Origin: Deroplatys truncata
Lineage: Eukaryota; Arthropoda; Insecta; Mantodea; Mantidae
Length of the DNA stretch: 64,000 nucleotides
Direction of reading: 5' to 3'
NCBI GenBank assembly: GCA_030765065.1
Contig: CM060975.1
Coordinates: forward strand, 162,908,993-162,972,992
Part shown: in pieces, positions 2,213-42,747 of the stretch
Layout: each line of letters opens with the position of its first letter
Position numbering within the stretch: position 1 is the stretch's first letter
Translations under genes and position numbers: made by a program
The notes under the pieces: model-generated
The model's database searches: none
Told to the model about the DNA's origin: nothing
What the model saw: the letters and a program-made list of their open reading frames with translations, nothing else

Positions 2213-3362
2213 GTTCAAACATTTTCAGCTCAAGAATTAAAACTATTCATTGCTGAGTAGTGTTAGTGTTTTGTTTAATATCATGCCTATTACATATGAT
2301 ATTTTACATGCTTATGTGTCCATGAAGCTAGTTTAATAATTTAGTCGCAAAGAAAGAGTTGAATAGGTAAAATTTCTAGATATTCATATATAAAATTTTA
2401 CTGAGATTTGGAATATTAAATATTAAACTGGGGTGGCATTTAAAAAATCTGATGTGTTACACTCACATGACTTTCTCTACTCTTGTACAAACTATTTTTA
2501 CAAACGCTTATTCTCCATATGCTTCATGTTAATGGAGATATCGAGATGTCAATCTTATTGATAATTTTCTTGTAGATGCAAGGGGAATATGGTAGGTTTT
2601 AAGCGATAGTCAAATATTTTAATGCTGGTTGCTATGTGGCGCATTCCATTCTCCTTGCATGTCCAGGACATAAAAAAAATTCTGATGTGTTACACTCACA
2701 TGACTTTCTCTACTCTTGTACAATCTATTTTTACAAACGCTTATTCTCCATATGCTTCATGTTAATCGAGATATCGAGATGTCAATCTTATTGGTAATTT
2801 TCTTGTAGATGCAAGGGGAATATGGTAGCTTTTAAGCGATAGTCAAATATTTTAACGCTGGTTGCTATGTGGCGCATTCCATTCTCTTTGCATGTGCAGG
2901 ACATAAAAAAATGAATAACGAATTTGAGAAAAAGTATTGGAAAACTTAAGGAAATAACAAGCAATATCTCGAAAACGGTTCACTCAACAAAAGAAATGTA
3001 TATGACATAAGTTGTGTATTTTAACGCGATCTACATTTTTTGTGTAGTAACATTTTGTCTATCTCTTATGGTTTACCAGTTATGCAAAAGTCGTTCACAA
3101 TGAATACTTTTGGAGACATTCCCAGAAAATTCGAGATATACATTTCATTTCTCATGACATTATCTTAAACATATGATATTTTCATCAAAATCGTTAGAGC
3201 CATTTTAGAGAAAATTAAAATTGTCGAAAAATGTTCCATGTAAAAGGTAGTCTAGGGTGGGGGGATTTTCTTGAAAACCTTCGTGTCGCATCTCTGGAAG
3301 ATACTGAACCTAAATACCAAGTTTGGTGTTTATCCGACTCTTCGTTTTTGAGTTATGCTGTT

Positions 3363-3397
3363 CACAGACACACAGACACACACACACACACACACAG

Positions 3398-3426
<29 letters not shown>
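3363..3426. repeat. CA-rich microsatellite inside repeat unit
   Basis: A run of ACACAC with occasional AGAC interruptions lies in the body module of the second unit. Its frames give false Thr-His or Cys-Val proteins. Equivalent tracts are at about 4255-4339, 5167-5217 and 5817-5859. Confidence 0.9.
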
Positions 3427-3428
<2 letters not shown>

Positions 3429-4254
3429 CATGTTTTCAAAAATGCTTTTTTTGGATTCAGTAGGTCTCAAAACATGTATTTCCGGCGAAATCTCGGTATC
3501 GAATTTTTGGGTGGAATGCAATACTTCCCCTACTTACTATACGTAGTAGCGAAAGTAAAAATCTGATGTGTTACACTCACATGACTTTCTCTACTCTTGT
3601 ACAATCTAATTTTACAAACACCTATTCTCCATATGCTTCATGTTAAACGAGATATCGAGATGTCAAACTTATTGCTAATTTTCTTGTAGATGCAAGGGGA
3701 ATATGCTAGCTTTTAAGCGATAGTCAAATATTTTAATGCTGGTTGCTATGTGGCGCATTCCATTCTCTTTGCATGTCCAGGACATAAAAAAAATGAATAA
3801 CGAATTTGAGAAAAAGTATAAGTATTGGAAAATTTAAGGAAATAACAAGCAATATCTCGAAAACGGTTCACTCAACAAAAGAAATGTATATGACATAAGT
3901 TGTGTATTTTAACGCGATCTACATTTTTTGTGTAGTAAAATTTTGTCTATCTCTTATGGTTTACCAGTTATGCAAAAGTCGTTCACAATGAAGAATGCTT
4001 TTGGAGACATTCCCAGAAAATTGGAGATATACATTTCATTTCTCATGACATTATCTTAAACATATGATATTTTCATCAAAATCGTTAGAGCCATTTTTGA
4101 GAAAATTAAAATTTTCGAAAAATCTTCCATGTAAAGGGTAGTCTGGGGTGGGGGGATTTTCTTGAAAACCTTCGTGTCGCATCTCTGGAAGATACTGAAC
4201 CTAAATACCAAGTTTGGTGCGTCTCCGACTGTTCGTTTTTGAGTTATGCTGTTC

Positions 4255-4339
4255 ACAGACACACACACACACAGACACACACACAGACACACACACACAC
4301 AGACACACACACACACACACACACACAGACACACACACG
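4255..4339. repeat. CA/CAGA microsatellite inside repeat unit
   Basis: This is the longest of the four in-array CA tracts, with several CAGA interruptions. It follows the same TATGCTGTTCACAGAC junction as in the other units. Confidence 0.9.
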
Positions 4340-5996
4340 GACATGTTTCCAAAAATGCTTTTTTTGGATTCAGGAGGTCTCAAAACATGTATTTCCGGTG
4401 AAATCTCGGTATCGAATTTTTGGGTGGAATACAATACTTCCCCTACTTACTATACGTAGTAGAGAAAGTAAAAATCTGATGTGTTACACTCACATGACTT
4501 TCTCTACTCTTGTACAATCTATTTTTACAAACGCCTATTCACCATATGCTTCATATTAATCGAGATATCGAGATGTCAATCTTATTTGTAATTTTCTTGT
4601 AGATGCAAGGGGAATATGCTAGCTTTTAAGCGATAGTCAAATATTTTATCGCTGGTTGCTATGTGGGGCATTCCATTCTCTTTGCATGTCCAGAACATAA
4701 AAAAATGAATAACGAATTTGAGAAAAAGTATAAGTATTGGAAAATTTAAGGGAATAACAAGCAATATCTCGCAAACGGTTCACTCAACAAAAGAAATGTA
4801 TATGACATAACTTGTGTATTTTAACGCGATCTACATTTTTTGTGTAGTAAAATTTTGTCTATCTCTTATGGTTTACCAGTTATGAAAAAGTCGTTCATAA
4901 TGAAGAACACTTTTGGAGACATTCCCAGAAAATTCGAGATATCCATTTTATTTGTCATGACAATATCTTAAACATATGATATTTTAATCAAAATCGTTAG
5001 AGCCGTTTTTGAGAAAATTAAAATTTTCAAAAAATGTTCCATGTAAAGGGTAGTCTGGGTTGGGGGGATTTTCTTGAAAACCTTCGTGTCGCATCTCTGG
5101 AAGATACTGAACCTAAATACCAAGTTTGGTGCTTATCCGATTGTTCGTTTTTGAGTTATGCTGTTCACAGACACACACACAGACACACACACACACAGAC
5201 ACACAGACACACACACGGACATGTTTCTAAAAATGCTTTTTTTGGATTCAGGAGGTCTCAAAACGTGTATTTCCGGTGAAATCTCGGTATCGAATTTTTG
5301 GGTGGAATGCAATACTTCCCCTACTTACTATACGTAGTAGAGAAAGTAAAAATGAATAACGAATTTGAGAAAAAGTATAAGTATTGGAAAATTTAAGGGA
5401 ATAACAAGCAATATCTCGCAAACGGTTCACTCAACAAAAGAAATGTATATGACATAAATTGTGTATTTTAACGCGATCTACATTTTTCGTGTAGTAAAAT
5501 TTTGTCTATCTCTTATGGTTTACCAGTTATGAAAAAGTCGTTCATAACGAAGAATACTTTTGGAGACATTCCCAGAAAATTCGAGATATACATTTTATTT
5601 GTCATGACAATATCTTAAACATATGATATTTTAATCAAAATCGTTAGAGCCGTTTTTGAGAAAATTAAAATTTTCGAAAAATGTTCCATGTAAAGGGTAG
5701 TCTGGGGTGGGGGGATTTTCTTGAAAACCTTCGTGTCGCATCTCTGAAAGATACTGAACCTAAATACCAAGTTTGGTGTTTATCCGACTCTTCGTTTTTG
5801 AGTTATGCTGTTCACAGACACACATACAGACACACAGACACACAGACAGACACACACACGGACATGTTTCCAAAAATGCTTTTTTTGGATTCAGTGAGTC
5901 TCAAAACATGTATTTCCGGTGAAATCTCGGTATCGAAATTTTGGGTGGAATACAATACTTCCCCTACTTACTATACGTAGTAGAGAAAGTAAAAAT

Positions 5997-6640
5997 TAAC
6001 TTTACTGTCACACTCTCTATACCTGAATAGTACCTAAATGTTTTTTGAACACTGGTATTATATTAAAATAAGAACTGTTTTCCTGGCAAATATTTACCTC
6101 AAATTGCTCTTTAGCTTACAGCCAAGTTGTTAACATTTGGAGGGTTTTATCCTCTTCATCTTTAGGGAAACTGAACATTTGACATCCTGGCTGGAAGCCA
6201 GAGGCAATTTGTGGTGTCATAGTGTATGATTTATTTCATATAGCTTCTGTAAAAGAAATGTTTTTCTAGTATTAAAATTTAAGATGTTATAAGTGATATT
6301 CCAACTTCTTATATGCAAGGTATATTGTTAATATTTGATAAATGAAAGGAATAGGTTTAGTATCATGAGTTCCTATAAATGCTGTTAAAATGTCCTTCTG
6401 CTTCAAGAATTGAAATTGAGCTGCTGTTTGCTGCTCAAGGCTTATGCTTCCAAACAATGTGTTTCTCACTACCAAATTTGTAGGTACCTTTAATTGCTTT
6501 ACCAGGTCTGTTATTCCAACTTCTTTTTTCCTTCTTTTCTTTTCTTTTTTTTTTTTAATTCTACATAGTAATCACAGAAATGCTAAGCACTTTAATTATA
6601 ATGTAACAATCACTTGGAACTCAAGCACATAGCTGGAAAC
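5997..6640. other. AT-rich intergenic DNA
   Basis: I see nothing supportable here beyond a T-rich run near 6526-6557. No transposon motif or credible exon was recognised. Confidence 0.4.
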
Positions 6641-6704
6641 TGTAACGGTATTAATGTTATAAATTATTCAACATTATTGTAGCCCCACGTTGTGGTAGCC
6701 AATT
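6640..6704 (-). repeat. Extra primer-binding-site-like segment outside the left LTR
   Basis: ATTGTAGCCCCACGTTGTGG and the following TAGCCAATT, just left of the left LTR, match the sequence found just left of the right LTR at 10228-10256. For a minus-strand element this is where the primer-binding site and leader lie, so the left LTR also looks like the 5' LTR of a second, mostly missing element. No 5-bp target duplication is visible around 6705-11253. Confidence 0.6.
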
Positions 6705-7701
6705 TGATGCGGTATTACTTATAAAGTTTGTTTAAATCATGTGTTGAAGCCATCTTGTGACGTCATTCATTTGTTCGGTTTGTAGCTCCATCTGGTGTTA
6801 GCAATTTGCAGCAGTGTTCGTGTTCGTTTGAAAGAACGATATTGTTATCTTAATTAATTTTGGTTTACTGTCCTCCGGCTAGCTATTATTTCTCGGTCGA
6901 ACATGTCTCTTGATCAGGGTTGTGTAAACGGAAAGGAATCTTTTATCCAAAAAGAACACTGATGAAGAAATTTGTTTTATAATTTTATTGTCGAACACGT
7001 TCACTCTCACTTTTATACATTGATCTTTACACTCGCCAAACTGAAACTGTTATAATAACTTCTTACTGATCACTTTTAATCCACGTACTTCAACTTTTTG
7101 TATAATTAACCTTACAACACTTTAGATTATTCATAATTCTGCTGCGCGTAACTTGTGAATCGATACCCGACGTTTGCCGTACAAATACTTTCGACGAATT
7201 GGCTGACTGAAGACGACGTGTAGTGTACACAGATTTTTTATGAAATGGCCGACTGAAGGCGACGTGTAATGTATTTAGATTTTCGATGAACTGTCTGCGA
7301 TCTACCTCTGACTTGGCTTTTTATACACCCACTCCCCGATATGCCTAAAGATTATAACTGAGTTACTATTGGCTAATAAAACGCGCCAACATTAGCGTCT
7401 ATTTTAATATCCAATGAAAATTATGAATACATATGCTCTAGGGAGAAAATATTCTAGAAGTTTCTACCGAAAAACGCGCCAACATTACGTAACTTCCTCG
7501 TTTCCAATAATGATAAACAGCTCACCCCCTCGCTGCATTATTGCACGCTATTATTGTCAGTTTCAGTAAGGCAGTATAAACTTACTTCCCAACAATAATT
7601 ACAATCAACAAACATCTCAAATCAATGTCACATAATAATGCATATTCATACTATAATCATTATTTACATTTAAGTAATTTGTGATACAAATTACTGCATC
7701 A
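6705..7701 (-). repeat. 3' LTR (left copy)
   Basis: 997 bp, TGATGC...GCATCA. On the minus strand a TATAAAA box lies at about 7319-7325 and an AATAAA signal at 6984-6989, giving a conventional U3-R-U5 order. It is nearly identical to 10257-11253. Confidence 0.9.
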
Positions 7702-8440: not shown

Positions 8441-9681
8441 TTACCCTCCTGGATCAAATTGTGTGTGGCTAAACATTACTCGTAGCCGTATCCTAACCTT
8501 CAAATTTTTGTTCATGAATAACCTCTTGTATTCATATGAAATTTCGTCCCCTGATATAATTTGAAAACAATCTAAAGTTTCCTGAACAACAAATCTTTTA
8601 ACAACTGTCATTTTCAATTCTTCTACTATCTCTTTAATTTGAGAGTACTCTGACAAATCTGTACTAAACTGCACTGGACTGGAGTTTTCAATTTGAACAG
8701 CTTGATACTTGTTAATTTCAGAAATTAGCTTTTGATTATTTACAGGCAAAACTTTAACTTCATCAGATAATTTATTTCTCTGTGTTTCTGACTCCTTCTG
8801 AATTTCAAATATTTCCCCTCTGAAATTAACTTGCACCTGTATTAAATCTGCATTTGTAGCCTCCATCATTTCTCTTAACTCACTTGAAATGCTACTCATT
8901 CGGCTACCTAACTCTGTATAGTTTACATTAACATTTTCAAACTTAGTATTAACCTCATTTTTTGGTTATATATTTCCCTGCTAATGTCCAACATTTTCTT
9001 TGAAACTTCACCTATTTCATTTGCTATCATTTCTTGATTTTCATTTTTCATTCTAATCATGCTACTATCTAGTTCCATGAATTTCTTTTCAATTTCTTCC
9101 CTATTTTGATCTAATTTATGCTCTAATTTCTCATTACTCTTACCAATTTCTTCCCTTAATTGATCTGTAATACTCTTATCAATATCTTCCCTCAATTTCT
9201 CATTATTCTGAGTTAGTTTTTGTTCTAAACTCCTATCAATATCTTCCCTCAATTTCTCATTATTCTGAGTTAGTTTTTGTTCTAAACTCCTATCAATATC
9301 TTCCCTGTTTTGATCTATTTTCTTTTCTAATTTCTCATTATTCTTACAAATTTCTTCCCTTATACTCTGAGTTAATTTTTGTTCTAATTTCTCAATATTC
9401 TTACTACTATCTTCCCTGTTTTGTTCTACACTCTTATTTAGTATTTCACCAAAATTTCTTATCATTTCCATCATCGTACTAGCATCAAAATTAACATTTC
9501 CTGCTATTCTATTCTGACTTTCTGCACTAACATTTTCACCCTCAAATCCTACATTGTTTGGGCTATTATCTGTAACCTGTATTGAATTACAGCTAACTGT
9601 TACATTATCTCCCTCCATAATTATTTCTTCAATATTATTAGTAGCCATTATTTTCTTTATCCTACCACTCCTTAAGTACAT
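8441..9681 (-). CDS. Gag-like coiled-coil protein, split by one frameshift
   Basis: The frame starts MYLRSGRIKK at 9681 and runs to 8923. A second frame continues the same coiled coil from 8899 to a stop at 8441, after ...TQFDPGG. Reading through shows one shift at the run of six A (minus strand, 8958-8963), so the original product was about 410 residues. It is almost entirely charged heptads and predicted coiled coil. A 19-residue unit, NNEKLREDIDRSLEQKLTQ, is repeated exactly in tandem (57 bp each, about 9178-9291). There is no zinc knuckle. By position this is the structural gag protein of the LTR element. The shift could be a mutation, a sequencing error in the homopolymer, or programmed; I cannot tell which. 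Confidence 0.7.
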
Positions 9682-9985
9682 TTGAAGGTTACAATTTTGT
9701 TTTCTAAAAAAAAATTACGATACTCTGACCTTTGTGATGCTGTCTGTTGCTGTTACTTTGATGTCCAGCTTCCTGCCCCTCTCTCCTAGATTTGTATGTC
9801 GCTTCGATGAATCTGCGTCGTTTTGTTGTCCTGTAGTTTGAATTTCCCTGTTGCCTTGTAATCTCGGAATTACAATGTCCAATCATCCGCGTAGTCTGTC
9901 GTCCCTGTTGTTTCTGGAATCTGCGTCTTGTAGATCATTTCACTGCTGCATTCGTTCCACGTCCTGGTTCCTTTCCTGGTCACTC

Positions 9986-10256
9986 TGCCCCACGTTCTGG
10001 GTGCCAATTTGCGAGTGTATTATGTTGTTGTATTTAACATTATTGTAGCCCCACGTTGTGCGCCAATTTGTAGTAGTTTTTGTTTACGTAATATGTTTTT
10101 ACGTAAATTATTAGAACTTGAAGATCTTATATTGTGCTGCTTTTGTTTTGTTTGATTACATAATTTTAACTGCCCCACGTATGGTAGCCAATTTGTAGTG
10201 GTTTAATGTTAATGTATATTTAAAATTATTGTAGCCCCACGTTGTGGTAGCCAATT
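9986..10256 (-). repeat. Array of four primer-binding-site-like repeats
   Basis: Four versions of GCCCCACGT...GCCAATTTG occur at about 9986-10012, 10049-10070, 10172-10195 and 10234-10256. On the minus strand each reads TTGGC...ACGTGGGGC, and the last abuts the 5' LTR. That last copy is where tRNA-primed minus-strand DNA synthesis would begin. The spacing is irregular (about 60-120 bp) and the middle bases vary: GTTGTGCGCC, GTATGGTAGCC and GTTCTGGGTGCC. Confidence 0.7.
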
Positions 10257-11253
10257 TGATGCGGTATTACTTATAAAGTTTGTTTACATCATGTGTTGAA
10301 GCCATCTTGTGACGTCATTCATTTGTTCGGTTTGTAGCTCCATCTGGTGTTAGCAATTTGCAGCAGTGTTCGTGTTCGTTTGAAAGAATGATATTGTTAT
10401 CTTAATTAATTTTGGTTTACTGTCCTCCGGCTAGCTATTATTTCTCGGTCGAACATGTCTCTTGATCAGGGTTGTGTAAACGGAAAGGAATCTTTTATCC
10501 AAAAAGAACACTGATGAAGAAATTTGTTTTATAATTTTATTGTCGAACACGTTCACTCTCACTTTTATACATTGATCTTAACACTCGCCAAACTGAAACT
10601 GTTATAATAACTTCTTACTGATCACTTTTAATCCACGTACTTCAACTTTTTGTATAATTAACCTTACAACACTTTAGATTATTCATAATTCTGCTGCGCG
10701 TAACTTGTGAATCGATACCCGACGTTTGCCGTACAAATACTTTCGACGAATTGGCTGACTGAAGACGACGTGTAGTGTACACAGATTTTTTATGAAATGG
10801 CCGACTGAAGGCGACGTGTAATGTATTTAGATTTTCGATGAACTGCCTGCGATCTACCTCTGACTTGGCTTTTTATACACCCACTCCCCGATATGCCTAA
10901 AGATTATAACTGAGTTACTATTGGCTAATAAAACGCGCCAACATTAGCGTCTATTTTAATATCCAATGAAAATTATGAATACATATGCTCTAGGGAGAAA
11001 ATATTCCAGAAGTTTCTACCGAAAAACGCGCCAACATTACGTAACTTCCTCGTTTCCAATAATGATAAACAGCTCACCCCCTCGCTGCATTATTGCACGC
11101 TATTATTGTCAGTTTCAGTAAGGCAGTATAAACTTACTTCCCAACAATAATTACAATCAACAAACATCTCAAATCAATGTCACATAATAATGCATATTCA
11201 TACTATAATCATTATTTACATTTAAGTAATTTGTGATACAAATTACTGCATCA
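10257..11253 (-). repeat. 5' LTR (right copy)
   Basis: 997 bp, TGATGC...GCATCA. A minus-strand TATAAAA lies at 10871-10877 and AATAAA at 10536-10541. This copy would drive transcription leftward through the gag-like frame. It differs from the left LTR at only about five sites. Confidence 0.9.
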
Positions 11254-12235: not shown

Positions 12236-12424
12236 ATGAAACTGAAAAAATGTTTGTTTCAGCTTGTATTGATGGTATTGTTGCTGTTTACCATAGCAAC
12301 ATGTGTTCCTACAGATCAGGACCCAACTGACCCTGACTCTGGTTCAGAATATTCACCAACAGATCTATCTGGCATTGGTATTAAATCAAAGCTACTCCTG
12401 AAGAAGCTTCTGCTGCTTGGTTAA
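12236..12424 (+). CDS. Gene A: small secreted cationic peptide precursor
   Basis: The frame encodes 62 residues from ATG 12236 (A at -3) to TAA 12422-12424. In order it has a signal peptide (MKLKKCLFQ, then a hydrophobic stretch of about 14 residues), an acidic Pro/Asp/Thr spacer with PTDQDPTDPD, and a C-terminal segment GIGIKSKLLLKKLLLLG directly before the stop. That segment is hydrophobic with four lysines, and its final Gly is the usual donor for C-terminal amidation. From residue 10 it aligns with gene B at 18.6 kb without gaps until the C-terminal segment. TTTGTTTCAG ends at 12262, exactly where gene B's exon begins. So either the coding exon starts at 12263 with an upstream first exon I cannot find, or A uses the in-frame Met at 12236. 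The layout suggests an antimicrobial, venom or signalling peptide; this is inference and no named family is recognised. Confidence 0.7.
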   Translation: MKLKKCLFQLVLMVLLLFTIATCVPTDQDPTDPDSGSEYSPTDLSGIGIKSKLLLKKLLLLG

Positions 12425-12760
12425 TTCTGTCATGAACAACATCAATCAAGTCATAATGAAAGTGGAACATTTTGAAATTATATTACCTGTTCATAAATGC
12501 TCTTTGTATGCATTTATTAATTTATTTAGCAGTAAATTGGTGCAACTTATCATGCAATAATTGTTCTGTGTTTCACATTCAAAGCATTATAAAAAATTAT
12601 AACTCAAATACCAATGTTGTGATGTTTATATAAACTAGTAATTTCAAAAAATAATAGTTATTTTAATTCCATGATGAACAGGAATGATACAGTTATAAGA
12701 AAATGGAACATTTTATTACACATACAATTATCTGTTTATAAATAAAGATTTTTACATATC
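12425..12760 (+). other. Gene A 3' UTR with internal duplication
   Basis: An AATAAA signal lies at 12741-12746, about 320 nt after the stop. The region contains an imperfect direct duplication: about 12452-12565 (TGGAACATTTT ... TTTATTTAGCA ... GCAACTTATCA) recurs at about 12690-12815 (TGGAACATTTT ... TTTATTTAGCA ... TAGCTTATCA). Its role is unknown. Confidence 0.55.
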
Positions 12761-12942
12761 TTTCTATGCTTTTATTTACTTATTTATTTAGCATAAAGTG
12801 GTATAGCTTATCACACTAAAACTATGCATTTTTTATGCCATAAGGAAATTGATTTGCTTAAAAATGCAGGGAAAAAACATTAATTTAAACCTAAAGATTT
12901 GAATAAATCTCTGCGTCTGCATCTTATTTCCAGAGTAGTTGG

Positions 12943-14269
12943 CAGGGCTGGATCAAGGGGAAGTTGAGCTATGACACCGCCCAGGGTAACAAAATCTTAA
13001 AACATGAACAAGATATGTGAAAATATGATGGAATCACAAATCATGCATAAAATATAGTGACTTTATGGACATTTTTTATTATGAAATTGGTGACAAATGA
13101 ATTTGGGTGATTTGAATGTGACCCTCATTGATGATCATTGTCAAAACATTCCATACTACATCAAATGTTCAACAATAAGCATCATGCTTATACACAGGAG
13201 TGTTTCAAGCAACTAGCTTTAGTTTATTTGCTTACATTGGTCACTGATGAACCTTTCAGGTCAGCTATCACCCTAGTGGTATCCTGAAAATTGGTGTTTG
13301 TGTGTTCAGTTACTTGTGTTGTTAGACTACTTTGTTAGTAACTACTGCTTTTAACTCTAGAGAAGCTCAATCGGAATCTTTGAACTAAATGCAATAAGAA
13401 GGCATGTCTATGGCTGATATACCTGAAATGAGCATCCCACCACACACAAACCTTTTTCTTCACTTAAAGAAGCAGAGATATTTCAGGGAAGCCTTAGCTC
13501 CTTGAACAAGGTCCTTCATGGTCTCAGATTTGAGTTTGAGATAATAAAAAGAGAAAAATAAAACTTCAAAGATACAATATTGTAACCTTAAGAGCATTAT
13601 TAAATACAAACTAAGAATTTGAGGGATATAGTTATGTTTGGCTGAAACATGGTTAAAAGCTGGCCATACCATATTCTGACCATAAGATAGAATTGAAAGC
13701 TTCATTAAGTCATCTGCAGGACTCTATTATTGCCTATGCTGAAACATCTCATTTTTTATGGCCACTTACTGCTCTGCAATTCAAGAAGATCTGGGGATTA
13801 CCATGAGGACATTAACCATGGACATTTCTACAGATGGTTTAAGGATCAATTATTCCCTAACATCCCATGTTATTGTTATGGACAGTGGCCCATACTACAT
13901 AATCTGAATAGATAGGTGCACATTAACAGTAACACTAAGTGCAAATGGTAGTATGCTCACTTGCCAATATGTGGCATGTAACATTTAATTTTATTTTGGT
14001 ATATTTTTAGTCTTTTAATCTCCTGATGAAGGGGTAAACTCAAAATAGTGAACTATTTTTATTGTGTAACTTTGTGTGTTTTATCTTTCACTCAGAAGTA
14101 TCTCATTGTTTCACCACATATATCTCTTCTTGAGTTTTATTCATTGATTATTCCTGCAAATATATATATGACTGACATTGCAGATAAAAATTATGTCTGA
14201 AAGTGTAAGGGGCTGGCACTTGCAATTATCTCATGGGGGGGGGAGGCAAAACTCTTGGAGCTGGCCCTG
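12943..14269. mobile_element. hAT-like DNA transposon with 8-bp target duplication
   Basis: The left end reads CAGGGCTGG and the right end GCTGGCCCTG, whose complement is CAGGGCCAGC. The flanks are GTAGTTGG (12935-12942) and GTAGTTGA (14270-14277), an 8-bp duplication with one mismatch. CAGGGC-type ends and 8-bp duplications are typical of hAT elements. No hAT transposase can be read inside, so this copy would be non-autonomous. A plus-strand DDE fragment of another transposon class lies within it. Confidence 0.65.
13730..13915 (+). pseudogene. DDE transposase fragment (Tc1/mariner-like superfamily)
   Basis: SGDYHEDINHGHFYRWFKDQ followed by LFPNIPCY resembles the block around the second catalytic acid of Tc1/mariner-type endonucleases, normally followed by VMDNAPYH. 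Here that block has degenerated to CYGQWPILHN. Only about 60 residues are readable, and the fragment sits inside the hAT-like element. It may be a captured or nested remnant. I am moderately confident of the superfamily and not of the subfamily. Confidence 0.5.
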
Positions 14270-14277
14270 GTAGTTGA

Positions 14278-15149
14278 TTAACATGGCCCATATCTGAGGA
14301 TAATAGAGGCCATCAAAATATTTGCATACATAACAATAATGCATGAAATTAGAACTGGGGTAAAAAAAACATGCAACTAAAATGAAGATGATGTAAAATC
14401 AGTTACAAAAGAACCTTGTTTATCTAGTCCTCATTAATTTGGATTCTTGCTTTATCTGGATTGATTTTTTGCTTACTTACTTTTGCTTCTCAAATGTAAC
14501 ACAAATTTGAAAGAAAAGAAACTTACACACTATTTCAGAAAATAAAAGTAAGTATATGTGTGCTTCATTTTCAAGTGTTCAACTTTCTTCTGCTAAACCA
14601 CTTGTATAATCTATTTCTTGCGGTTGCTCCATTATTACCACCAACAGTTTCTGGAAGCCATTGCACAAATACAGCTCCTCAGCACAATTAACTGTGGACT
14701 GCTCACTCTTCCACTGCTCATTAGTGTGAGAGGCTAAATACTGTGTCATATTTTCTGGTGAGCCTTCTTGTCCATGATTTGTTATTATTTTCCTATACGC
14801 CCCAACATAAAATGCTTTGTTTTATTGTTGGTTTATAAAAATTAATAAACCCATTAGAGAGGAAGAAATCTAGAAAATGTTGACAGCATACTGGAAAAAG
14901 TTTGGTAACTTACTGTTGCAAAAAATATTCCAAATAGTTATGTACATATGTTTTACTGCCCAGAATTCTGCATGATTCAATAATAAGATTCTGCCATCTG
15001 TAATAAGGTTAATTAATTTTGGATAATGCATTTACTGCTTACTTAATGACAGAACCTGTCTTTTTGGCAAAAAAGTGTCAATATTTAAGTTATAAGCACA
15101 AACTTTTTCAAGTATGGCAATAACACAGCCACTATTTAAGCATTAGGAG
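14278..15149. other. Unassigned AT-rich DNA
   Basis: I see no exon, transposon motif or structured RNA that I can support here. Confidence 0.35.
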
Positions 15150-15154
15150 TTGAA

Positions 15155-15225
15155 TTTTGGACATGTTACATTCGACCTACAACTGATGATGGAAGCTAAA
15201 GCTTCCAAAACATGTCCTTTATAAA
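15155..15225 (+). other. Hammerhead-like, Penelope-type terminal motif
   Basis: GGACATGT is followed by a short loop, CTGATGA, a hairpin GGAAGC-TAAA-GCTTCC, AAA, then ACATGTCC. The outer eight bases pair perfectly, and CTGATGA plus the helix resemble a hammerhead core, but GAAA is altered to AAAA. Penelope-like elements are known to carry hammerhead motifs in their terminal repeats. This copy looks degenerate and probably inactive. Confidence 0.5.
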
Positions 15226-16245
15226 TTACTCAGTAAAGAAAGCAAATATGTCCCAAATTCTACTTCTAATACTTCAATACCAAATTTTGCCTTCACTGTT
15301 ACAAAGCTTCTAAAAAATTAATATAGCCATTATTGGTAAATGCTATTCAGTGACAGAGAAATGTTTGAGACTCTGCCAGTCCATCTGATAGCGGACAGTG
15401 GAGTAAAAGGGAATGGGTTATTTTACATTTTTAATTTTTTAAATTTTTAATGTCCTTTAACCTGGTAGGTCTCATTGGATGATCTCATGTAACTTGTTTT
15501 CTGAGTTTGGATTTTAATTTAAAAAAAATATTGATGTCTTCAGTTGTCTTATTCCCTTATGCTTCATAACTAACTTATCTTTTAAATCAATCACTTCAAT
15601 ATATTCAAGAAATTTCAGTGACAACTTTCATAGATTCTAGTTTTCTGTATGTCAACTGGGAGTTTTTTTGAGATGCTGAATGTATCAGTGCTGTGAAGTG
15701 TAAACGCACGTAGCTTAAAGTTGCTTGACCATATTTATCTTTCAGGATAGAAAATCTCAGAGAAAAACGTTAAGGCAGCATATTTAACTTGAGAATGAAC
15801 CCAAGTACTTGCAAGAACAAACATATACCACATTCATTGCATAAGAAGACAAAGTCTAATTGACATCAAGTACATATTCTATTTATTTAACTCATAAACA
15901 GACAATTTTGTGTTAACTCTTAACAAGCAGATACTTTTATTATTATAAATGGACAAAATGTGGTCAATATCAAGCATATGTTGTATAATTTATTTTATAG
16001 GTAGGTAATATTTGTGATAGCTTTAACAAGCAGACAAACACCACTTTCATTATATAAACATAAAAAAACCTGGTGAACACCAAACATGTAATCCATCCAT
16101 CTACATTACAAGCACACAACTATTAGTTCCTGTAAACCTACTCCTAGATTTTAATTATTGTTATAGCAGTTAAAAGCTGGATGCTTGGAAATTCTATGCA
16201 GATTACATTGTTATTAAAAGTATCTATTTTTGTTTTTACGCTGCA
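15226..16245. other. Unassigned AT-rich DNA
   Basis: I see nothing supportable. The sequence is AT-rich without recognised repeats or coding signal. Confidence 0.35.
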
Positions 16246-16712
16246 AATAAAGAAAGAAAAGAGGTATTCTCAGAAAATTCAACATATACATTTCATTTGT
16301 TATGAAAACATTTTAAACATGTATTATTTTAATCAAAATCATAAGAGCCATTTTGAGAAAATTATCATTTTTGAAAAATGTTCCATGTAAAGCGTAGCTT
16401 GTGATGGAGGGGACTTTTTTTGAAAATCATTGTGTCACATCCTTGGAAGATGTTGAACATAAATATCAAGTTTGGTACTTGACCGACTTTTCACTTTTGA
16501 GTTATGCTGTTCACAGACAGACAGACAGACAGACAGACAGAAGATAGACATAGAGACCACACATATGGAACTTTTTTCTGAAAACACTTCTTCTGGGTTC
16601 AGCGGGCCTCAAAACACGAATTTCTGGTGAAATCTCGATGACGTATTTTTGAGTAGAATAGAATACTTCCTCTACTCACTGCAAAAACATAGCAGAAAGA
16701 CTAAAAATAATG
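16246..16712 (+). repeat. Diverged body module of the tandem repeat family
   Basis: It matches the 2.4-6 kb body module from TTCTCAGAAAATTC through GCCATTTTGAGAAAATTA and TGTTCCATGTAAAG to CTTCCTCTACTCACTG. It has many substitutions, and the CA tract is replaced by (GACA)n near 16515-16540. It is an older copy than the array. Confidence 0.75.
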
Positions 16713-16857
16713 ATAGAGACAGCCAAAATTAAGTTTTTAAGAAGTGTTACAGTGTTAAAGCTCTTAGATAAAAGAAAAGTGTAGGTGCTATTATGAATTA
16801 AACATTGCTTAAATTATGTCCTAAATAGAAATATGTAGCAATAATGGAAGGAACGTT

Positions 16858-17311
16858 TAAAAATCTGATGTGATACATTCACATTACTTTCTGTACCTTC
16901 TATCTTTATTAGTGGGTACACAAACTATTCTTACTAAAGCTTATTTTTCATCTACTACATTTTAATCCAAATAAACCTTTGCAAAAATAACTACATTACA
17001 CATTTTGTTATAGATTCAAAGAGAACAGTAATAGTCAAATGTTTAAGAACTGGACGTTATATGCTGGCCTTAAAATTCCATACTGTTTCCATGCAATTGC
17101 GAGAAACCACTGAAAATCAATGGGACTGTAAAAGAATTATAAGTATTGAACAATTTAAACCTTTAATAATGGATATCTCAGAAAATCTTCCAAGTAAAGG
17201 GCAGTTGGGGGTAAGGAGATTTTCTTGAAAATCTTCATGTCACATCCTTGGAACATACTGAACTCAAATATCAAGTTTGGTATTTATCCAACTTTTTGTT
17301 TTTGAGTTATG

Positions 17312-17369
<58 letters not shown>

Positions 17370-17508
17370 TCGTGTTTCCAAAAATGCTTTATTTGGATTC
17401 AGGGAGCCCTCAAAACATGTATTTCAGGTGAAATCTTGGTATCAAATTTTTGGGTGGAATGAAATACTTTCTCTACCTATTACATACATGGTAGAGAAAG
17501 TAAAAATA
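16858..17508 (+). repeat. Diverged head plus shortened body of the tandem repeat family
   Basis: It starts AAATCTGATGTGATACATTC and ends GGTAGAGAAAGTAAAAAT, like the array units. The middle of the body is deleted. A CA tract of about 56 bp fills 17312-17367. Confidence 0.8.
17312..17367. repeat. (CA)n microsatellite
   Basis: This is an uninterrupted CA run inside the diverged repeat unit, following GAGTTATGC as in the other units. It has no coding meaning. Confidence 0.95.
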
Positions 17509-18605
17509 TGATATAGATATACATCTGAATGCTAAACATCTGGTCATAGCCATTGTACACTGGAACTATTTTTTTGCCAAAGTAAGCATTTTTACTAATT
17601 TAGGAAGGCATTAATGTTTGCTAATAAGAACAACACAGATTCTGCATCACATATGCTCTCCATTCAAAATCAATTCTGTTCAATTGCTTCTTAGGGTTTT
17701 CTATGGTTACCCACCAAAATTGTTACATGTTTCAGTAAGACATAACAAAATATGATTTTACAAAATAAATTTTATTATACTCTTTTCAAAATTCCAGCCA
17801 GTGCATGTCAATCCATACTGTAGAATTTCATTTTCCAAGTTAATTAGAAAACACATTATTGTAACTATTACATGTATTTGAATGAACTAACATTTGAAAT
17901 ACAAAATAAAAATAAAGACAAAATAACAAGGAATTCTTAAACAAGAACTTCTCAAGGTCACACAGTGTTTAGTTTTATAATGCTACATAAAAATACTTAG
18001 CTTCATAATACAGCTTATTTTTTAAAATGTTGGTCCAGAGGTAAGTGTTGATACCAAACGGTAATGAAGTTAACTTTATAATGCAATTAGGTACATTGAA
18101 GTCAAATGGCTAAATTTTCAATACTTTTCCATGCTTTGTACATCATTAGAAAACCTTAGTTACCACAATAGAATGAATATTGCACAGAAGAAATATTAGG
18201 AATCATTGCTCCAAAAGTAAATATTGGAACTAAACGTTAAATAGTTTGCCTTTGGCTGCAAAGCTCCAGTACAAATGTAGTTGTTAAAAATAAAAGATTA
18301 ACACTATTTTGTTTTACCCCACAATGTTCATAATAGTATAATTACAAAAATGTAGTAACTACATTTATAACATATATATTTATAATTATAACCCCAAGGT
18401 ACAGTAGGTTAAGATTTAAACAGTTTTAGAAAATGACAATTACATTGAATTGTTGGTTTTCACTAAATGAATGAAAATTTGTAGCAACTTTAGAATTAGA
18501 TGTTTTAAGTGTACAGCATTTTTTGACAAATGAATACAGTGAAACACTGAGTTCTTAATATTAAGCCTAGGATTGCATAATTACGGAAAATAACATTAAT
18601 ATTAA
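17509..18605. other. AT-rich DNA downstream of gene B
   Basis: On the minus strand this is the 3' side of gene B and may hold its 3' UTR. A minus-strand AATAAA occurs near 17770, far from the stop. I saw no nearer canonical signal. Nothing else is recognised. Confidence 0.4.
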
Positions 18606-18758
18606 TTATCCAATAAGCAATTTCTTAATTTTCTTCTTAATTATGAAGCCAGAAGCATCAAGTGGTGACTGATTGGAACCAACATCTGGGTCTGTTGGAT
18701 CTTCATCTGTGGGCATGCTAAGCACCATTGCGAACACCGCCAATATTAAACATATTAC
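18606..18758 (-). CDS. Gene B terminal exon: small secreted cationic peptide precursor
   Basis: The minus strand has a T-rich tract and CAG (18761-18759), a strong 3' splice site. Then follow 50 codons and a stop at 18606-18608. The exon starts in phase 0 with a hydrophobic run of about 15 residues (VICLILAVFAMVLSM). Next come the acidic spacer PTDEDPTDPD, a linker VGSNQSPLDAS, and GFIIKKKIKKLLIG before the stop. The C-terminus carries five lysines among Ile/Leu/Phe and ends in Gly, as in amidated amphipathic peptides. Gene A has the same 15+10+11 residue spacing. The start codon must lie in an upstream exon, and the candidate at 46.6 kb fits in frame. The exon reads convergently with gene A, 6.2 kb away. 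Conservation of the spacer against divergence of the C-terminus suggests a diversifying peptide family; function is inferred only. Confidence 0.75.
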   Translation of the reverse strand, partial: VICLILAVFAMVLSMPTDEDPTDPDVGSNQSPLDASGFIIKKKIKKLLIG

Positions 18759-18961
18759 CTGAAAAAAAAAAGGAAAAATCGGGAATTGTATAAATTATGA
18801 CCTTTTCCTTACACTCGTTGTAGGTATGTGAATAAATAAACTGGTTAAGCTGTAAATGTAACAACCTGTGGATGCACACAGAAAAAAAATATTTTTTCCC
18901 TTTTTCTAAGTCCTCCAGTCCTACATAATAGAAATGAACACAGCCATATTGTTTTAACATA

Positions 18962-20055: not shown

Positions 20056-23000
20056 CTACCTTAGGATCAGACTGACGTAACTACATGAATGCATGTTTTG
20101 AGATATTTAAGTTTTTAAGTTTGTGATGATGCTATATGTATATTAGCGTTGTTGAACACAAACTTTGTTGTGAAATTCGATAACCTAGTTCATTTGCCCA
20201 ATGATTGGCATTGATGTTTAGTTTTTAATAATAAATTATTAAGTAGATATTTAATATTTTAATAAAATGCGCTGTAGTTACGTCTCTTTGATCCTAAACA
20301 AATTACGATTTCCTGCTGCGACTCTATGGGTATTACAATCTTATAATGAAACTTCACACACTTTGTTGTTGTAAGACATTTTTATTAAAGCATAAAATAA
20401 ATGATAAACAAAATTACATTAATATTACACTGTTGTAATGGGAGTGAAGTGAGGAATAAAACTGATGGTACTTCTGTGGAATTATCCCTTTCTGGCATAA
20501 CTCTTTCAGATCGCATAGTTTCTCTTTGGTGCCTGGCAGGGGACTGTCATAGACAGGTTGTAATGCTAACTCGTCTGTTTGATTTCTTCTTCTGTGTCCA
20601 GCTCTTATGGTCTGCAACTCATGAAATTCTGCCTCATCGTAACAATACTTGAAATATATTTTGTATGGTTCACCCTTACGTATTACATCCATACAATTTT
20701 CAACAAGCTCACTGCTTCTCCTTTTTCATTCGTCTTTCTATTCCTAATTGTTTCTTTCTGAAGTTCAGTAAAGTTTACGAATTTCGTAGAATCCATCTCT
20801 ATGACAGTGTATCTCTTTGATGTCATGCGTACTACAATGAACCATCCTATAGGATCGAACACATCTACGTGCTTGCTCTAATTTTCTATGCAGACATGTA
20901 CAGAGTCCACTTCTATCTGTGAGTGGCCTGGTTCGAAAAACTGCTGATTTATTACTGGAATGTGCATATTCTGGACGGCATATAACAACATCGCACACAT
21001 GTTAATATTTAGGATTTGTCCACCACATGTATCTGAAAGTAGTGTTATTTCCTTTCCATTTGCAACATCTCTCAGAAGGTCCAAAACACACGATGCCCTT
21101 CTGTTGAACTCCTTTTCGCTGTTGACTCATCTCACATATTGGCTTGTAGTTTCATAAATTCAAAATTGTCAAGTTATAGACAAACAATTGTCTTTTATAA
21201 AACAAAGACTTGGAATTTGTCGTAGGACAGTACAGTACTGCCTCCAACTCATATTCTGCCATAACACATTCACCTTTTTTTTGCTTCATCCTTTTTCTTA
21301 TTCTTCATTTCTCGTGCAATTCTTTCTTCTTGATGTGATCATCGTTGTTTTTCTTTGTATTTTCATCTTCCTTCTCCATCTATATAAGATTAGAATATTT
21401 GAAACATCCATTGTTATACATGATCCAAATATTTAAATATCAGGTAAGTATTCCTTGTCAAACTTCTTCCTGGAATAATGAGATGGGAGAGCTGGAAGTT
21501 TCCGGATATGGTTTCTGATTTCCTCCTCCTTATCTTCCGGTGGTTTCCTACCAGGTGCATGGTGACCTCTTTTCTCCTTCTCTATTACATTGTGATCACC
21601 TCTTTTCTTAATGGTTGTCCTCACAAACGTTTCTGATATGTCAAAGGTAGTGAGGAAAAATTGCATAGGTACCTGAATTTTATCAAATCCTTTGACTAGG
21701 AAAAGATGTTTACTATTTTTTCTTCTAGAACGTTCTGATTGTGTTCAGATACTTTCCTTTCCATATCCATCAACTAATGAACTCAAATATTGTCTCTGAA
21801 GTTCAGTAGAACCAAGGTCCCAGAAAGCTTGATGGAGTTTTTGTCTATCATCGTTATTGAAATTATCATTACATTTTTGAATACACCTTGAACAACCGTT
21901 TCACGCACCCTTCGAGCTGGAAAATCTTGATTTGTGGTAGAAGTGTATGCTTTTCCCGACTGTCTATTAAGTCTTTTTTTTTTCTTTTCCATTCTTCCAT
22001 AACAACCCTCTTCTTTCTTTTCCTTGTAACGGGGTCTTCACTGAGTTTACCATTAGTTTCTTTAGATTCTGCAACCTGCTCTCTACATTTTCATTGACAT
22101 CCCTTCCTGTTGTTCATCATAGTTGGAATCTGTAATAAATTAATAATAAATGGTAGCTATAAACAAGCCTATTCGTAAACATAGGAATAAATATAGTTTT
22201 ATAAAAAGATAGTTCCCTAGGTTCTATGATGACTCACCCTTTCACACAGATCATCTAGCACAGGGTCTTTGCCTGAATTAGTATTATCCATTTCCATATA
22301 TTCTGCAACCTGAACCATGTTTACAGTAATAATGCCTCTCTGCGTCTGTAATACATTATATTCCAGATATAATCAGAAGAACTTTCAGAAGGTTATAAGA
22401 TCATCACTCTTCTCATCCAGGTAATTAGAATCGTCACTGGGTTCATTAACTGACTCAGGACTATTAATTTCCATAGATTGTGCCACCAGAACTCTGGCTT
22501 TCACATTAGGATTGACAACGCCCCTCTATACCTGTTCATCATTAGAATCTGTAATAAATGAATAATGTGTCTATAGTTTAGACCTCCAAAACACAATAAT
22601 AACAACCACAACAACAATAATAATAATAACAGGGTGTAGGAGTAATAGTAAATAGTCCAAAACCATAACATCACAATTATTAATCACCATTCTCACTTAG
22701 ATCACTTTTTGGCTCATAATCAGGACCAGTATCTGAGTCAGCTGCTGCTATAAATTCTCTAAACAATGCTTCTCCTTCCTCATCTTCTGATGTCCCACTG
22801 CCATAAACTATAAAATAACAAAGTACTGAATGGTTTAACTAAGTTACTCGTTTAAATGACAGCTCATATATAATTCATTTATTATTTCAATATCGTTTAA
22901 TAACTAACAAACATATATTTATTTATATTTTGTTCCAATGTATTTTATACTTACATTTATCATTATTTTCATTATTCTTCTGTTCGCTTACTAACTGAAC

Positions 23001-23589: not shown

Positions 23590-24061
23590 CTTATGTACAT
23601 ATTCATAAATTATTGCTCCTTTTCTCTTTTAACAGTCCATTTCCAATTAGTTTTTATATTTCCATTTTCAAGTCCATTTCCAAATCTCAGTTTCACTGCA
23701 TTCAAATACTAGTGTTGTACATCTTTCTTTCTTTCCTCACATAATGGGCATTCACCTTCTGGTTAGCCATTCTGTTGACCTTAGCCTCCATGATCCTGCC
23801 CTTAGCCATGAAATCCCCCTTTTTCTTTTTCATTGGTGTTGACTATAATACATTATATTACCTCTCTCTTTTCTAACTATTTTTCATTGAAACATAGAAT
23901 GTTAATGATCCCTTCTCTGTTACTTGACTGAACAACTTTTGTCTCTCAATATCTTATAAATTATCATTTAAATTCAGTATTTCAAAGCTCTCTCCATATC
24001 ATGCTTTTCTTGCTCTCTTTCCATTTAAGTTTGAGCAACTTTATTAGCTGTTGTTATTGGC
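23590..24061 (-). pseudogene. LINE reverse transcriptase C-terminal region (downstream part of a split LINE)
   Basis: On the minus strand, continuing from 25309-25900, a segment with LGLPITTANKVAQ leads to a Cys-rich end with CPLCEERK near 23750, as in LINE C-termini. The frame is broken by stops. The two parts are separated by the plus-strand LINE at 24062-25308, which landed in the older element just after the LYAAEIWGLEN block. Confidence 0.55.
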
Positions 24062-25308
24062 AACCCCAGAACTTCCTTGGAAAACATTCTGTGTACTAAA
24101 CCCACAACTTCTGACCCATACCTAGCAACATACCTTAAAAACCGGGTGCAATGCACAGAAATAAATTGGAAAAAAGATGACACTATACACACCACTAAAT
24201 CAGAGTATAATTTAATAAAATCGGGGGTACCTCAAGGATCAGTACTTGGACCTACACTTTTTTTTATCTATATAAATAATTTACCGGAACCGGAAAACAG
24301 CAAGGTGATCTCTTACGCAGACGATACATCTGTAATATGCTGGAGTGAAAGTAAAGAATGTTTAGAAGGTAAAATGACAAACACAATAGCTGAAATATCA
24401 CAGTATCTCCTACACAATGGACTAAAGTTAAATATAGGAAAAACAAAATTCATGACATTTCAAAACAATAATATAAATATAAACATTAACAATACTGCTT
24501 TAGAACAGGTAAGAAGCTATAAATTTCTGGGCATACATATAGAAGAAACTTTATCTTACAACATACACATAGAAATTGTCTGTAAAAAAAATGAACACAG
24601 GACTGTACCTATTGAGACAATTAGCAAAATACGGAGACACCAATATTCTTAAAACAGCATATTATGGCATCCTTTACCCACATCTAACATATGGTATTGA
24701 AATTTGGGGGGGACAAGTAAAACCAATATGGACAGATTATTAAAAATACAAAAAATGTGCATAAGAACTATGTTTAACCTTCGGTTTTGGCAATCCTGCC
24801 ATGAAACATCTATAACGCAAAACACCCTAACTGTAGTTTCACTGTATGTCTTTAAAACCATTATACTTGTTAAAGATATAAAGCAATTTAACATACTCAA
24901 TAAAGACTGTCATTCATATGATACGAGAGAGCAAACGAATACCATAGGGTAAGCACGAATAAAATGCAAACAAATAAAGACCCATATAAAATGGGAGGTA
25001 TACTATATAATAAATTACCATCTGCAATTAAGAATACCAGATATTCAAAATTTAAAACTGTCCTAAAATCATTCCTGATAGAGAAATGCTTGTATAATAT
25101 TACTGAATTATAATGGATATGTGTACTTATGTAAATATTATTAAGTAAACTGTATTAATCATTCCTGATAGAGAAATGTTATTAATTGAAATATAATGGA
25201 TATATATATATATGTGTGAGTGAGTGAGTGTGTGTGTGTGTAGCTATAATTGACAGTGTCAAATGTTCTTGTAGGAGTCTATTGACTGCAATAAAGTTAT
25301 TATTATTA
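24062..25308 (+). mobile_element. 5'-truncated L2/CR1-like LINE
   Basis: This LINE begins mid reverse transcriptase. One open segment (24077-24652) has the conserved GVPQGSVLGP and YADDT boxes, followed by LNIGKTKFM and KFLGIHIEETL. Decayed frames continue with LYPHLTYGIEIWG near 24690 and LYNKLPSAIKN near 25010-25040. The copy ends in ATAAAG(TTA)n at about 25290-25308. The 5' truncation and simple-repeat tail fit target-primed reverse transcription. It sits in opposite orientation inside an older LINE. Confidence 0.85.
24077..24652 (+). pseudogene. Reverse transcriptase fragment, YADD type
   Basis: 191 readable residues cover RT blocks around GVPQGSVLGPTLFFIYINNL and the catalytic SYADDTSV. 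These are palm motifs that coordinate the metal ions for DNA synthesis. Fingers, endonuclease and the N-terminal half are missing, and a frameshift near 24590 separates it from the thumb region. It is a 5'-truncated, dead LINE copy. Confidence 0.85.
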
Positions 25309-32628: not shown

Positions 32629-32681
32629 TTGAGTTACATTCTTCTTTCCTCCTGAGTGGTTTATTGCACATCCCCAAGGCT

Positions 32682-33143
32682 TTAGTTTCCCTGTCCCATA
32701 CAGAGATTTATTACATTTTTCATTACACTTGCTAGCTTGAAGGATCCCTTCCTATTTAAGTGTAGTCCATCTCTACCTAAGCAGTCCATTTCTATCTGTT
32801 TGTTAATATCTACATATATACACTTTAATGTCTCACAAACCCATCGTATGTTTCCATTTACCCTGTCTACATAAGTGTGGTTCACGTCCCTTCTTCTCAC
32901 AATACCGTTCACTAACACTCGCGATTTGGGATAATTCTCCTTTACACATCTTACTAAACTGTAAATTTCTCCCATAACCTCTTCTGGCGAGTTTGCATCT
33001 TTTAAATCGTTTGTGCCCGCGTGGAGAAGAATAAGTTTTGGATCACTGTGTTTGATTGTTTCTCGTTTTTCTATCACTTTTTCTAGCTGGCTTGACTTTA
33101 TACCGCTAAACACGTGCACTTTAGCGTAACCGTCCAAGTTCAC
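32682..33143 (-). CDS. LINE ORF1 SGNH-hydrolase-like domain
   Basis: 153 residues are open on the minus strand. LILLHAGTNDLKDANSPEE holds the block III G-x-N-D signature, and CLGRDGLHLNRKGSFKLA holds the C-terminal D-x-x-H pair of SGNH/GDSL esterases. The N-terminal strand with the nucleophile block would lie in the preceding frame (near 33150, ...VLGDCELGRL), where serine of GDS is Cys in this copy. ORF1 proteins of L2/CR1-type LINEs bind RNA and form particles with ORF2. The upstream part (33159-33341) is acidic and Glu/Lys-rich. One frame change separates it from this domain. Confidence 0.75.
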   Translation of the reverse strand: MNLDGYAKVHVFSGIKSSQLEKVIEKRETIKHSDPKLILLHAGTNDLKDANSPEEVMGEIYSLVRCVKENYPKSRVLVNGIVRRRDVNHTYVDRVNGNIRWVCETLKCIYVDINKQIEMDCLGRDGLHLNRKGSFKLASVMKNVINLCMGQGN

Positions 33144-33158
33144 AATCGCCTAACACCA

Positions 33159-42130: not shown

Positions 42131-42747
42131 ATTTATTTTAAATTCAGGGATTTTATCTACTAAGGAGGTTCTTAAGAAATTTAATGCTGATTCCTTGTTT
42201 CCATATTTTATGTTTAGTTTTTCTGTTATGTCCAGAAAGAAATTGTTAAAAATCTCCGCAACCTTCTGAGGTTCACTGATTACTTGAGTGCCTGTGTTTT
42301 GTATTATTGGGGGACTCTCTTGAGAGCACCTACCTGTTTCTGTATTTATTATGTTCCAAATGGTTTTATTTTATTATCTGAGTTTCATATCTGTTTATTA
42401 TCATGCAATATTTTTGCTGCTTTTATTGTTTCTTTGAGGAGTTTGCAATATTTCTTACAATAACGTTATAGGTTTGAGTTGTTATTATATTTAATTTCTT
42501 GATATAATTCTCTTTTGCATTTACAAGAAGTTTTAACACCTAACGTAAACCAGGAATTATTTCTCTTGTTGTTATGCACTTTGGTACATTTAACTGGAAA
42601 GCATGCTTCAAAATGAGTTTTGAAATGTTGTAGAAAACTGTTAAACTTGTCATTTACTCCCTAAATTTCATACATTTCATTCCAAGATTCTTGTTGGATT
42701 GATTGCTTAAAACATTTTTGATTACTTTCGTCTATTACTCTAGATTT

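What the first reader, a model, noticed from the sequence alone, without database searches (positions are those of the whole stretch)
12236..18758. Two paralogous genes for short secreted, lysine-rich, Gly-terminated peptides
Seen: the 12263-12424 (+) and 18758-18606 (-) exons align codon for codon over 36 residues (15 hydrophobic, 10 in PTDxDPTDPD, 11 linker). They then diverge into GIGIKSKLLLKKLLLLG and GFIIKKKIKKLLIG, both immediately before a stop. Known: amidated amphipathic antimicrobial and venom peptides are often made as signal peptide, acidic spacer, cationic segment and C-terminal Gly. Inference: this is an undescribed arthropod peptide family with a conserved spacer and a fast-changing effector segment. 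They are the only host-type genes I can support in the window.
Basis: partly seen in the sequence, partly recalled or inferred. Interest (0 to 1): 0.88.

Follow-up and report, generated by a model that had tools for sequence, protein, structure and literature searches.

The report
Ancient insect family of secreted peptides
Two neighbouring insect genes encode tiny secreted peptides with a lysine- and leucine-rich, glycine-ended tail, and unnamed relatives with the same tail turn up in termites, thrips, flies, mosquitoes and perhaps dragonflies, pointing to an old and so far unstudied insect peptide family.

Summary
Exons A (12263-12424, +) and B (18758-18606, -) are paralogous last coding exons: 18 of 37 codons give the same residue, dN/dS is about 0.40. 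They are the only two matches found in the 4.29-Gb genome. Architecture: signal peptide, acidic spacer, Lys/Leu tail, Gly-stop, no cysteine. Relatives: 18 termite-type proteins (one named, Zootermopsis nevadensis), thrips (E 3.6e-8), many Diptera and, weakly, a dragonfly. A profile from fly-type sequences alone ranks B and A first and second of 1507 window frames. No Pfam family reaches its cut-off; no relevant paper found.

'Conserved spacer, fast-changing effector' is true only near home: from the window or termites to flies the spacer falls to shuffled level while the tail persists. The tails show no more amphipathic order than shuffles. Before the tail there is no dibasic site (0 of 112), no dipeptide ladder (0 of 112) and rarely a spider-type site (6 of 112). 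I favour an amidated, self-neutralised defence peptide; signalling is the main rival. Expression, amidation and activity are untested.

The parts
12263..12424 (+). Gene A, last coding exon: rest of signal peptide, acidic spacer, Lys/Leu tail, Gly, stop
   Evidence: termite-type profile E 8.2e-21, fly-type profile E 7.9e-6 in the window
12251..12262 (+). Putative 3' splice site of A (TGTTTGTTTCAG)
   Evidence: Sequence; the same in-frame Gln (CAG) stands before the exon in termite-type P0007, P0009, P0012, P0015
12236..12262 (+). Alternative unspliced start of A: ATG in frame with the exon, giving MKLKKCLFQ before LVLMVLLL
   Evidence: not distinguished from the spliced form
18606..18758 (-). 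Gene B, last coding exon: same architecture, shorter tail
   Evidence: termite-type profile E 1.3e-20, fly-type profile E 5e-7 in the window
18759..18776 (-). Putative 3' splice site of B (long T tract then CAG)
   Evidence: Sequence; no in-frame ATG in the 12 codons before it
22955..22972 (-). Tentative exon 1 of B: ATG AAA ATA ATG ATA AAT (MKIMIN) followed by GTAAGT
   Evidence: Only candidate in 20 kb upstream; 0 in the two opposite-strand controls; only match of a strict pattern in 208,000 strand-bases; with a looser donor there is a second, unrelated match in the window. Not proven

Best explanation
A and B are two divergent paralogues of an old insect gene family that makes a cysteine-free secreted peptide of about 36-45 residues. 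Shown by sequence: a hydrophobic N-terminal segment; an X-Pro start of the mature part; an acidic spacer; a Lys/Leu tail that ends in Gly-stop; an exon boundary inside the signal peptide. Inferred: a short exon 1 supplies the start Met, signal peptidase cuts before X-Pro, and the terminal Gly is turned into an amide by the insect amidating enzymes. The acidic half then roughly cancels the basic tail while the peptide is made and stored. Outside the cell the tail acts on negatively charged membranes, most likely of microbes, either within the whole peptide once the halves separate or after an unidentified protease removes the spacer. The tail is the part under lasting selection; of the spacer mainly the charge is kept.
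For: Gly-stop in 112 of 118; in those 112 the spacer charge is -2 to -8 and the tail charge +3 to +7, spacer K/R is 0 in 96 and 1 in 16, mature length 36-45 in 111. Net charge of the amidated whole is -2 to +2 in 26 of 27 representatives; the exception, P0087 (+4), is mis-split by the rule. Wide alignment of 56: K45, K46, G50 of B invariant; P16, P32, K41, L44, L47, L48 at 90% or more. AlphaFold2: signal helix, loose spacer, tail helix (B mean pLDDT 67.5; P0028 72.6). Short amidated Lys/Leu peptides are commonly membrane-active (recalled).
Against: No amphipathic order beyond shuffles. No usual release site before the tail in most of 112. The tail keeps its residue order across orders, which a purely generic membrane agent would not need. 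No expression, infection or activity data. Exon 1 not found for A.
Confidence: 0.45

Rival explanations
1. A peptide hormone or neuromodulator: an amidated ligand whose C-terminus (KKLLxx-amide) is read by residue order by a receptor not yet paired.
For: Tail order kept from Polyneoptera-like insects to flies without amphipathic excess; Gly-stop for amidation; two copies only in this genome.
Against: No dibasic site in the spacer of any of 112, whereas passages on Polyneoptera neuropeptide precursors describe KR-type sites flanking most of them (PMC7179676, passages); not met by the terms searched in two neuropeptide surveys (main text only). The tails themselves hold KK pairs, so cutting inside the tail is not excluded.
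Confidence: 0.25
2. An uncleaved structural or physical peptide: the acidic and basic halves pair within or between molecules, forming a coat or gel on cuticle, gut, egg or glandular surfaces.
For: Near-neutral whole, narrow mature length (36-45 in 111 of 112) and no usual cleavage site.
Against: A charge-pairing role alone does not explain the invariant KK and terminal Gly. No data on tissue.
Confidence: 0.2
3. The two exons are decayed relics: the family is real but A, B or both are no longer expressed here.
For: No exon 1 found for A in 52 kb, only a tentative one for B.
Against: Both frames are open, keep the splice acceptor and Gly-stop, differ by dN/dS about 0.4 and match the termite-type profile at about 1e-20.
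Confidence: 0.1

Closest known systems
Unnamed proteins L798_12526 (Zootermopsis nevadensis, P0006) and ONE63_010512 (Megalurothrips usitatus, P0019)
   Same: Same family: DPTDPD-type spacer, SPxDLS linker, Lys/Leu tail, Gly-stop
   Different: Window tails are shorter or differently spaced; neither protein has a described function in the records seen
Unnamed dipteran proteins, e.g. Drosophila takahashii P0069, Anopheles ziemanni P0046 (record calls it AGAP012528-PA-like), Phlebotomus papatasi P0035, AAEL015144-PA P0087
   Same: Signal, X-Pro start in most, acidic spacer, KLKKLKKLLFLG-type tail, Gly-stop
   Different: Spacer sequence unrelated to the window's beyond composition (31% vs 28% shuffled)
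Linear cytolytic peptides of spider venom
   Same: Signal, propeptide, linear mature peptide, often C-terminal Gly/amide (passages of PMC9788040)
   Different: No sequence relation seen; quadruplet-like motif in 6 of 112 only; not a venom distribution
Melittin and mastoparan precursors of bees and wasps (recalled)
   Same: Signal, acidic propiece, cationic peptide, terminal Gly for amide (recalled)
   Different: No X-P/X-A dipeptide ladder: 0 of 112 by a test of the first three dipeptides
Mirror-symmetrical antimicrobial peptides of fungi and insects (PMC13357843, search listing and start of abstract only)
   Same: Small secreted peptides found by genome reading
   Different: That abstract describes about 85 residues with three disulphide bridges; here there is no cysteine in the mature part of 112 of 112

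Membership tests
The L798_12526 / ONE63_010512 insect peptide family (as gathered here) | Profile match independent of the window | tested here: met
   Termite-type profile: A 8.2e-21, B 1.3e-20; fly-type profile: B 5e-7, A 7.9e-6, third best frame 0.26 of 1507; part-wise shuffles reach A's exon score in 1 of 1000 and B's in 0 of 1000
The L798_12526 / ONE63_010512 insect peptide family (as gathered here) | Lys/Leu tail with KK and terminal Gly-stop | tested here: met
   Both window exons; K45, K46, G50 invariant in 56; the 56 were chosen from sequences ending in Gly, so the Gly count is by selection there; 112 of 118 overall
The L798_12526 / ONE63_010512 insect peptide family (as gathered here) | Phase-0 intron after about six codons | tested here: inconclusive
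   CAG acceptor at the same place; exon 1 tentative for B, not found for A
The L798_12526 / ONE63_010512 insect peptide family (as gathered here) | C-terminal amide | not testable with these tools
   Only the Gly-stop is seen
Amphipathic-helix antimicrobial peptides | Helical moment above that of shuffled sequence | tested here: not met
   0 of 10 tails; 0 of 8 cores at the 5% level
Amphipathic-helix antimicrobial peptides | Antimicrobial activity | not testable with these tools
   No assay data
Spider-type linear venom peptides | Processing quadruplet motif (Arg at -1, Glu at -2 to -4) before the mature peptide | tested here: not met
   Window A and B: no Arg at all; 6 of 112 of the family have a loose version allowing Asp
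Melittin/mastoparan-type precursors | Successive X-P or X-A dipeptides | tested here: not met
   0 of 112 (test of the first three dipeptides only)
Insect neuropeptide precursors | Dibasic site before the bioactive peptide | tested here: not met
   0 of 112 in the spacer; tails hold KK pairs
Any Pfam family | Score at the curated cut-off | tested here: not met
   3 forms of A and B (best E 0.18) and 10 relatives (best E 0.051): none at cut-off

The most novel reading that the evidence does not exclude
An unstudied amidated peptide system shared by insects from dragonflies to flies, in which the C-terminal KKLLxx-amide is read by residue order (a receptor, or a specific lipid or cell-wall target) and the acidic half is a charge shield almost free of sequence; it would be present in Drosophila and mosquitoes yet unnamed.
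Probability: 0.3. Interest if true: 0.82.

Novelty: new variant of a known kind. Interest (0 to 1): 0.62.

Why it matters
Small, cysteine-free, single-peptide genes are easily missed by domain libraries: none of 13 queries (3 forms of A and B, 10 relatives) reached a Pfam cut-off. If the family is as old as its spread suggests, its function can be tested directly in Drosophila and mosquitoes with gene removals and synthetic peptide. It also offers a case where the cationic tail keeps its residue order over a long time while the spacer keeps mainly its charge, the reverse of a fast-changing effector behind a conserved spacer.

Tried and rejected
Other collections: viral contigs gave one tblastn match, L001; frame 1 around it holds stops and no family feature, so I treat it as chance. 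Genome contigs gave none. Amphipathicity as the selected property: rejected. A coding 5' extension in P0007, P0009 and P0012: set aside, since fly models show MKFLxx where unspliced fragments show FQ or LQ, which reads as an intron end; I had no DNA of those proteins to test it. Exon 1 of A: no candidate in 12 kb or 52 kb under the filters used. Match of B's candidate exon 1 in A's upstream DNA: only short matches of 14 bases or fewer in the part of the list seen (output cut by the script). Venom: rejected on distribution. No named hit came from beetles, moths, bees or bugs, but this is not claimed as loss: the search needs shared 5-residue words and scored only 7979 and 7975 candidates in the second and third searches.

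Limits. The third search's query (A4) held a thrips and three fly-type sequences, so its E-values are not independent; one search is the independent check. For A in its longer open frame the fly-profile score is 22.5, which 2 of 1000 decoys reach; for the exon alone it is 24.1, which 1 of 1000 reaches. The window's own species was not identified. Searches of the own genome with P0010 and P0028 never ran.
Full report
What is there. The window lies at G000:C1:162908993-162972992 of a 4.29-Gb genome held as 818 contigs. Exon A (12263-12424, +) and exon B (18758-18606, -) converge, 6.2 kb apart. Each starts after a pyrimidine-rich stretch ending in CAG and ends in Gly-stop. Searched with B, the whole genome gives 2 matches, B and A (E up to 0.001); searched with A, the same 2 (E up to 10; 2 of 2 first-look candidates scored). 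The tool warns that such counts can be lower bounds.

Is it more than chance. A finds B in the window at E 4.4e-13, the next hit being 0.15. Over 37 gap-free codons 18 residues agree, 7 through different codons. Differences fall 16/7/21 on codon positions (second-position deficit p 0.008, chi-square p 0.03), dN/dS is 0.44/1.12, and blastn of the two surroundings gives no convincing match. I read this as a pair of protein-coding paralogues under purifying selection, not a recent DNA duplication.

Relatives. A two-sequence profile found 11 proteins among 13 candidates, one of them Zootermopsis nevadensis L798_12526. A second profile of 11 sequences found 22: 18 termite-type proteins, the thrips protein ONE63_010512 at 3.6e-8, and three at E 1.5-3.5 ending in KLKKLKKLLFG or KIKKLKKLLFLG. 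A third profile from those three plus the thrips protein found 112. Of the 94 sequences I group as fly-type, 40 carry species names, all Diptera by my own knowledge of the genera; 54 carry none. Frankliniella fusca (P0031) is a second named thrips. Ladona fulva, a dragonfly, is only at E 0.22 there.

Independent check. Because the third query already held thrips and fly-type sequences, I built a profile from 90 fly-type sequences alone. It ranks B (5e-7) and A (7.9e-6) first and second of 1507 open frames of the window, the third being 0.26. With the database size set to 3000 it finds 17 of 18 termite-type proteins at 1.8e-6 or better and the other, P0018, at 4.8e-5; the three thrips-type proteins at 1.1e-6 or better; and Ladona at 3.6e-7. 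Shuffling signal, spacer and tail apart, 1 of 1000 decoys of A and 0 of 1000 of B score as high as the exon. So much of the match is composition, but order adds to it; the link from the window to flies rests mainly on the chain through termites and thrips.

Anatomy. Of 118 sequences (116 found, 2 of the window) 112 end in Gly. The six dropped are P0004, P0054, P0086, P0088, P0093 and P0115: five have the Gly but run on past it (P0115 by one Lys), and P0088 lacks it. Among the 112, spacer K/R is 0 in 96 and 1 in 16, spacer charge -2 to -8, tail charge +3 to +7, mature length 36-45 in 111 (the split follows a simple rule and misplaces P0087, which has no X-Pro start). No cysteine in the mature part of any of the 112. 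The X-Pro proline is kept at 90% or more in an alignment of 56.

Intron. Termite-type P0007, P0009 and P0012 read KFQ-VVV, and P0015 FQ-AIV, where A reads tttCAG-CTT. Fly models read MKFLLL-S (P0069) or MKFLIV-T (P0055), where unspliced-looking ones read FQ-S (P0080), LQ-T (P0066) and FQ-T (P0060). I infer a phase-0 intron after about six codons, shared by flies and termite-like insects. For B one candidate exon 1 (MKIMIN, then GTAAGT) lies 4.2 kb upstream, with none in two opposite-strand controls; it is the only match of a strict pattern in 208,000 strand-bases, while a looser donor gives one other match in the window. For A none was found in 52 kb, but an in-frame ATG at 12236 gives a plausible signal peptide without splicing.

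What evolves. Identity of spacer and of tail (last 15 residues), shuffled level in brackets, for 2 window, 5 termite-type, 3 thrips-type and 17 fly-type representatives: A-B 67% (35) and 53% (38); window-termite 73% (34) and 57% (42); termite-termite 89% (37) and 80% (46); window-thrips 53% (32) and 57% (46); termite-thrips 56% (33) and 72% (50); window-fly 31% (28) and 59% (42); termite-fly 29% (28) and 68% (45); fly-fly 41% (27) and 75% (51).

How it may work. AlphaFold2 gives a signal helix, a poorly ordered spacer and a tail helix at low to moderate confidence (B mean pLDDT 67.5, pTM 0.30; Bradysia P0028 72.6, pTM 0.33). The tail's helical moment is not above shuffles in any of 10, nor notable in any of 8 cores against all permutations, Ladona ranking 460 of 462. 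No dibasic pair lies in the spacer of any of 112, 6 have a loose form of the spider quadruplet motif, none a three-step dipeptide ladder (motif as defined in passages of PMC9788040). I therefore favour a self-neutralised, amidated, membrane-directed defence peptide at 0.45, with a receptor ligand (0.25) and an uncleaved physical role (0.2) left open.

Known or not. A and B reach no Pfam cut-off, nor do ten relatives. PDB: 0 chains at E up to 10 for A1, one at 0.15 for A5. In the held PMC library, tail and spacer strings and two gene ids gave no relevant paper (the one hit is a diagnostics tool). Topical searches listed nothing on the family as far as titles and abstract starts show (one search listed 15 of 95). 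Two neuropeptide surveys were searched by term in the main text (PMC4237046; PMC7179676) and do not hold the termite id. Most subscription papers and all supplements are outside this, so 'undescribed' is limited to it.

Noticed in passing
window 2443-6096, with related stretches at 16261-17482: Tandem-like array of repeats about 0.65-0.9 kb apart (93-98% alike), with copies about 77-85% alike again between genes A and B.
   Followed up: no
window 6651-6950 and 10203-10502: Direct repeats 97% alike, 3552 bases apart, flanking long open frames at 8441-9714 (-) rich in coiled-coil-like repeats with only a weak apolipoprotein match; looks like a mobile element with terminal repeats. Described only.
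   Followed up: partly
window 30364-33149 (-): Frames matching reverse transcriptase, endonuclease and a GDSL-type esterase, as in a non-LTR element with an esterase first frame.
   Followed up: partly
window 24035-24652 (+), 41714-42370 (-), 49563-50006 (-): Further reverse-transcriptase fragments; the last lies in a G+C-rich island at 48-52 kb (45-49% against about 33%). The match at 41714-42370 is below Pfam's cut-off.
   Followed up: no
P0031 (Frankliniella fusca), P0017: Family members carry names that do not fit them: 'Acid-sensing ion channel 1' and 'aspartate/methionine/tyrosine aminotransferase'.
   Followed up: no
P0061/P0063 (Teleopsis dalmanni), P0077/P0081 (Drosophila grimshawi): Pairs of unlike paralogues with near-adjacent gene numbers, as if small clusters with two tail types recur in the family, as in this window.
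   Followed up: no
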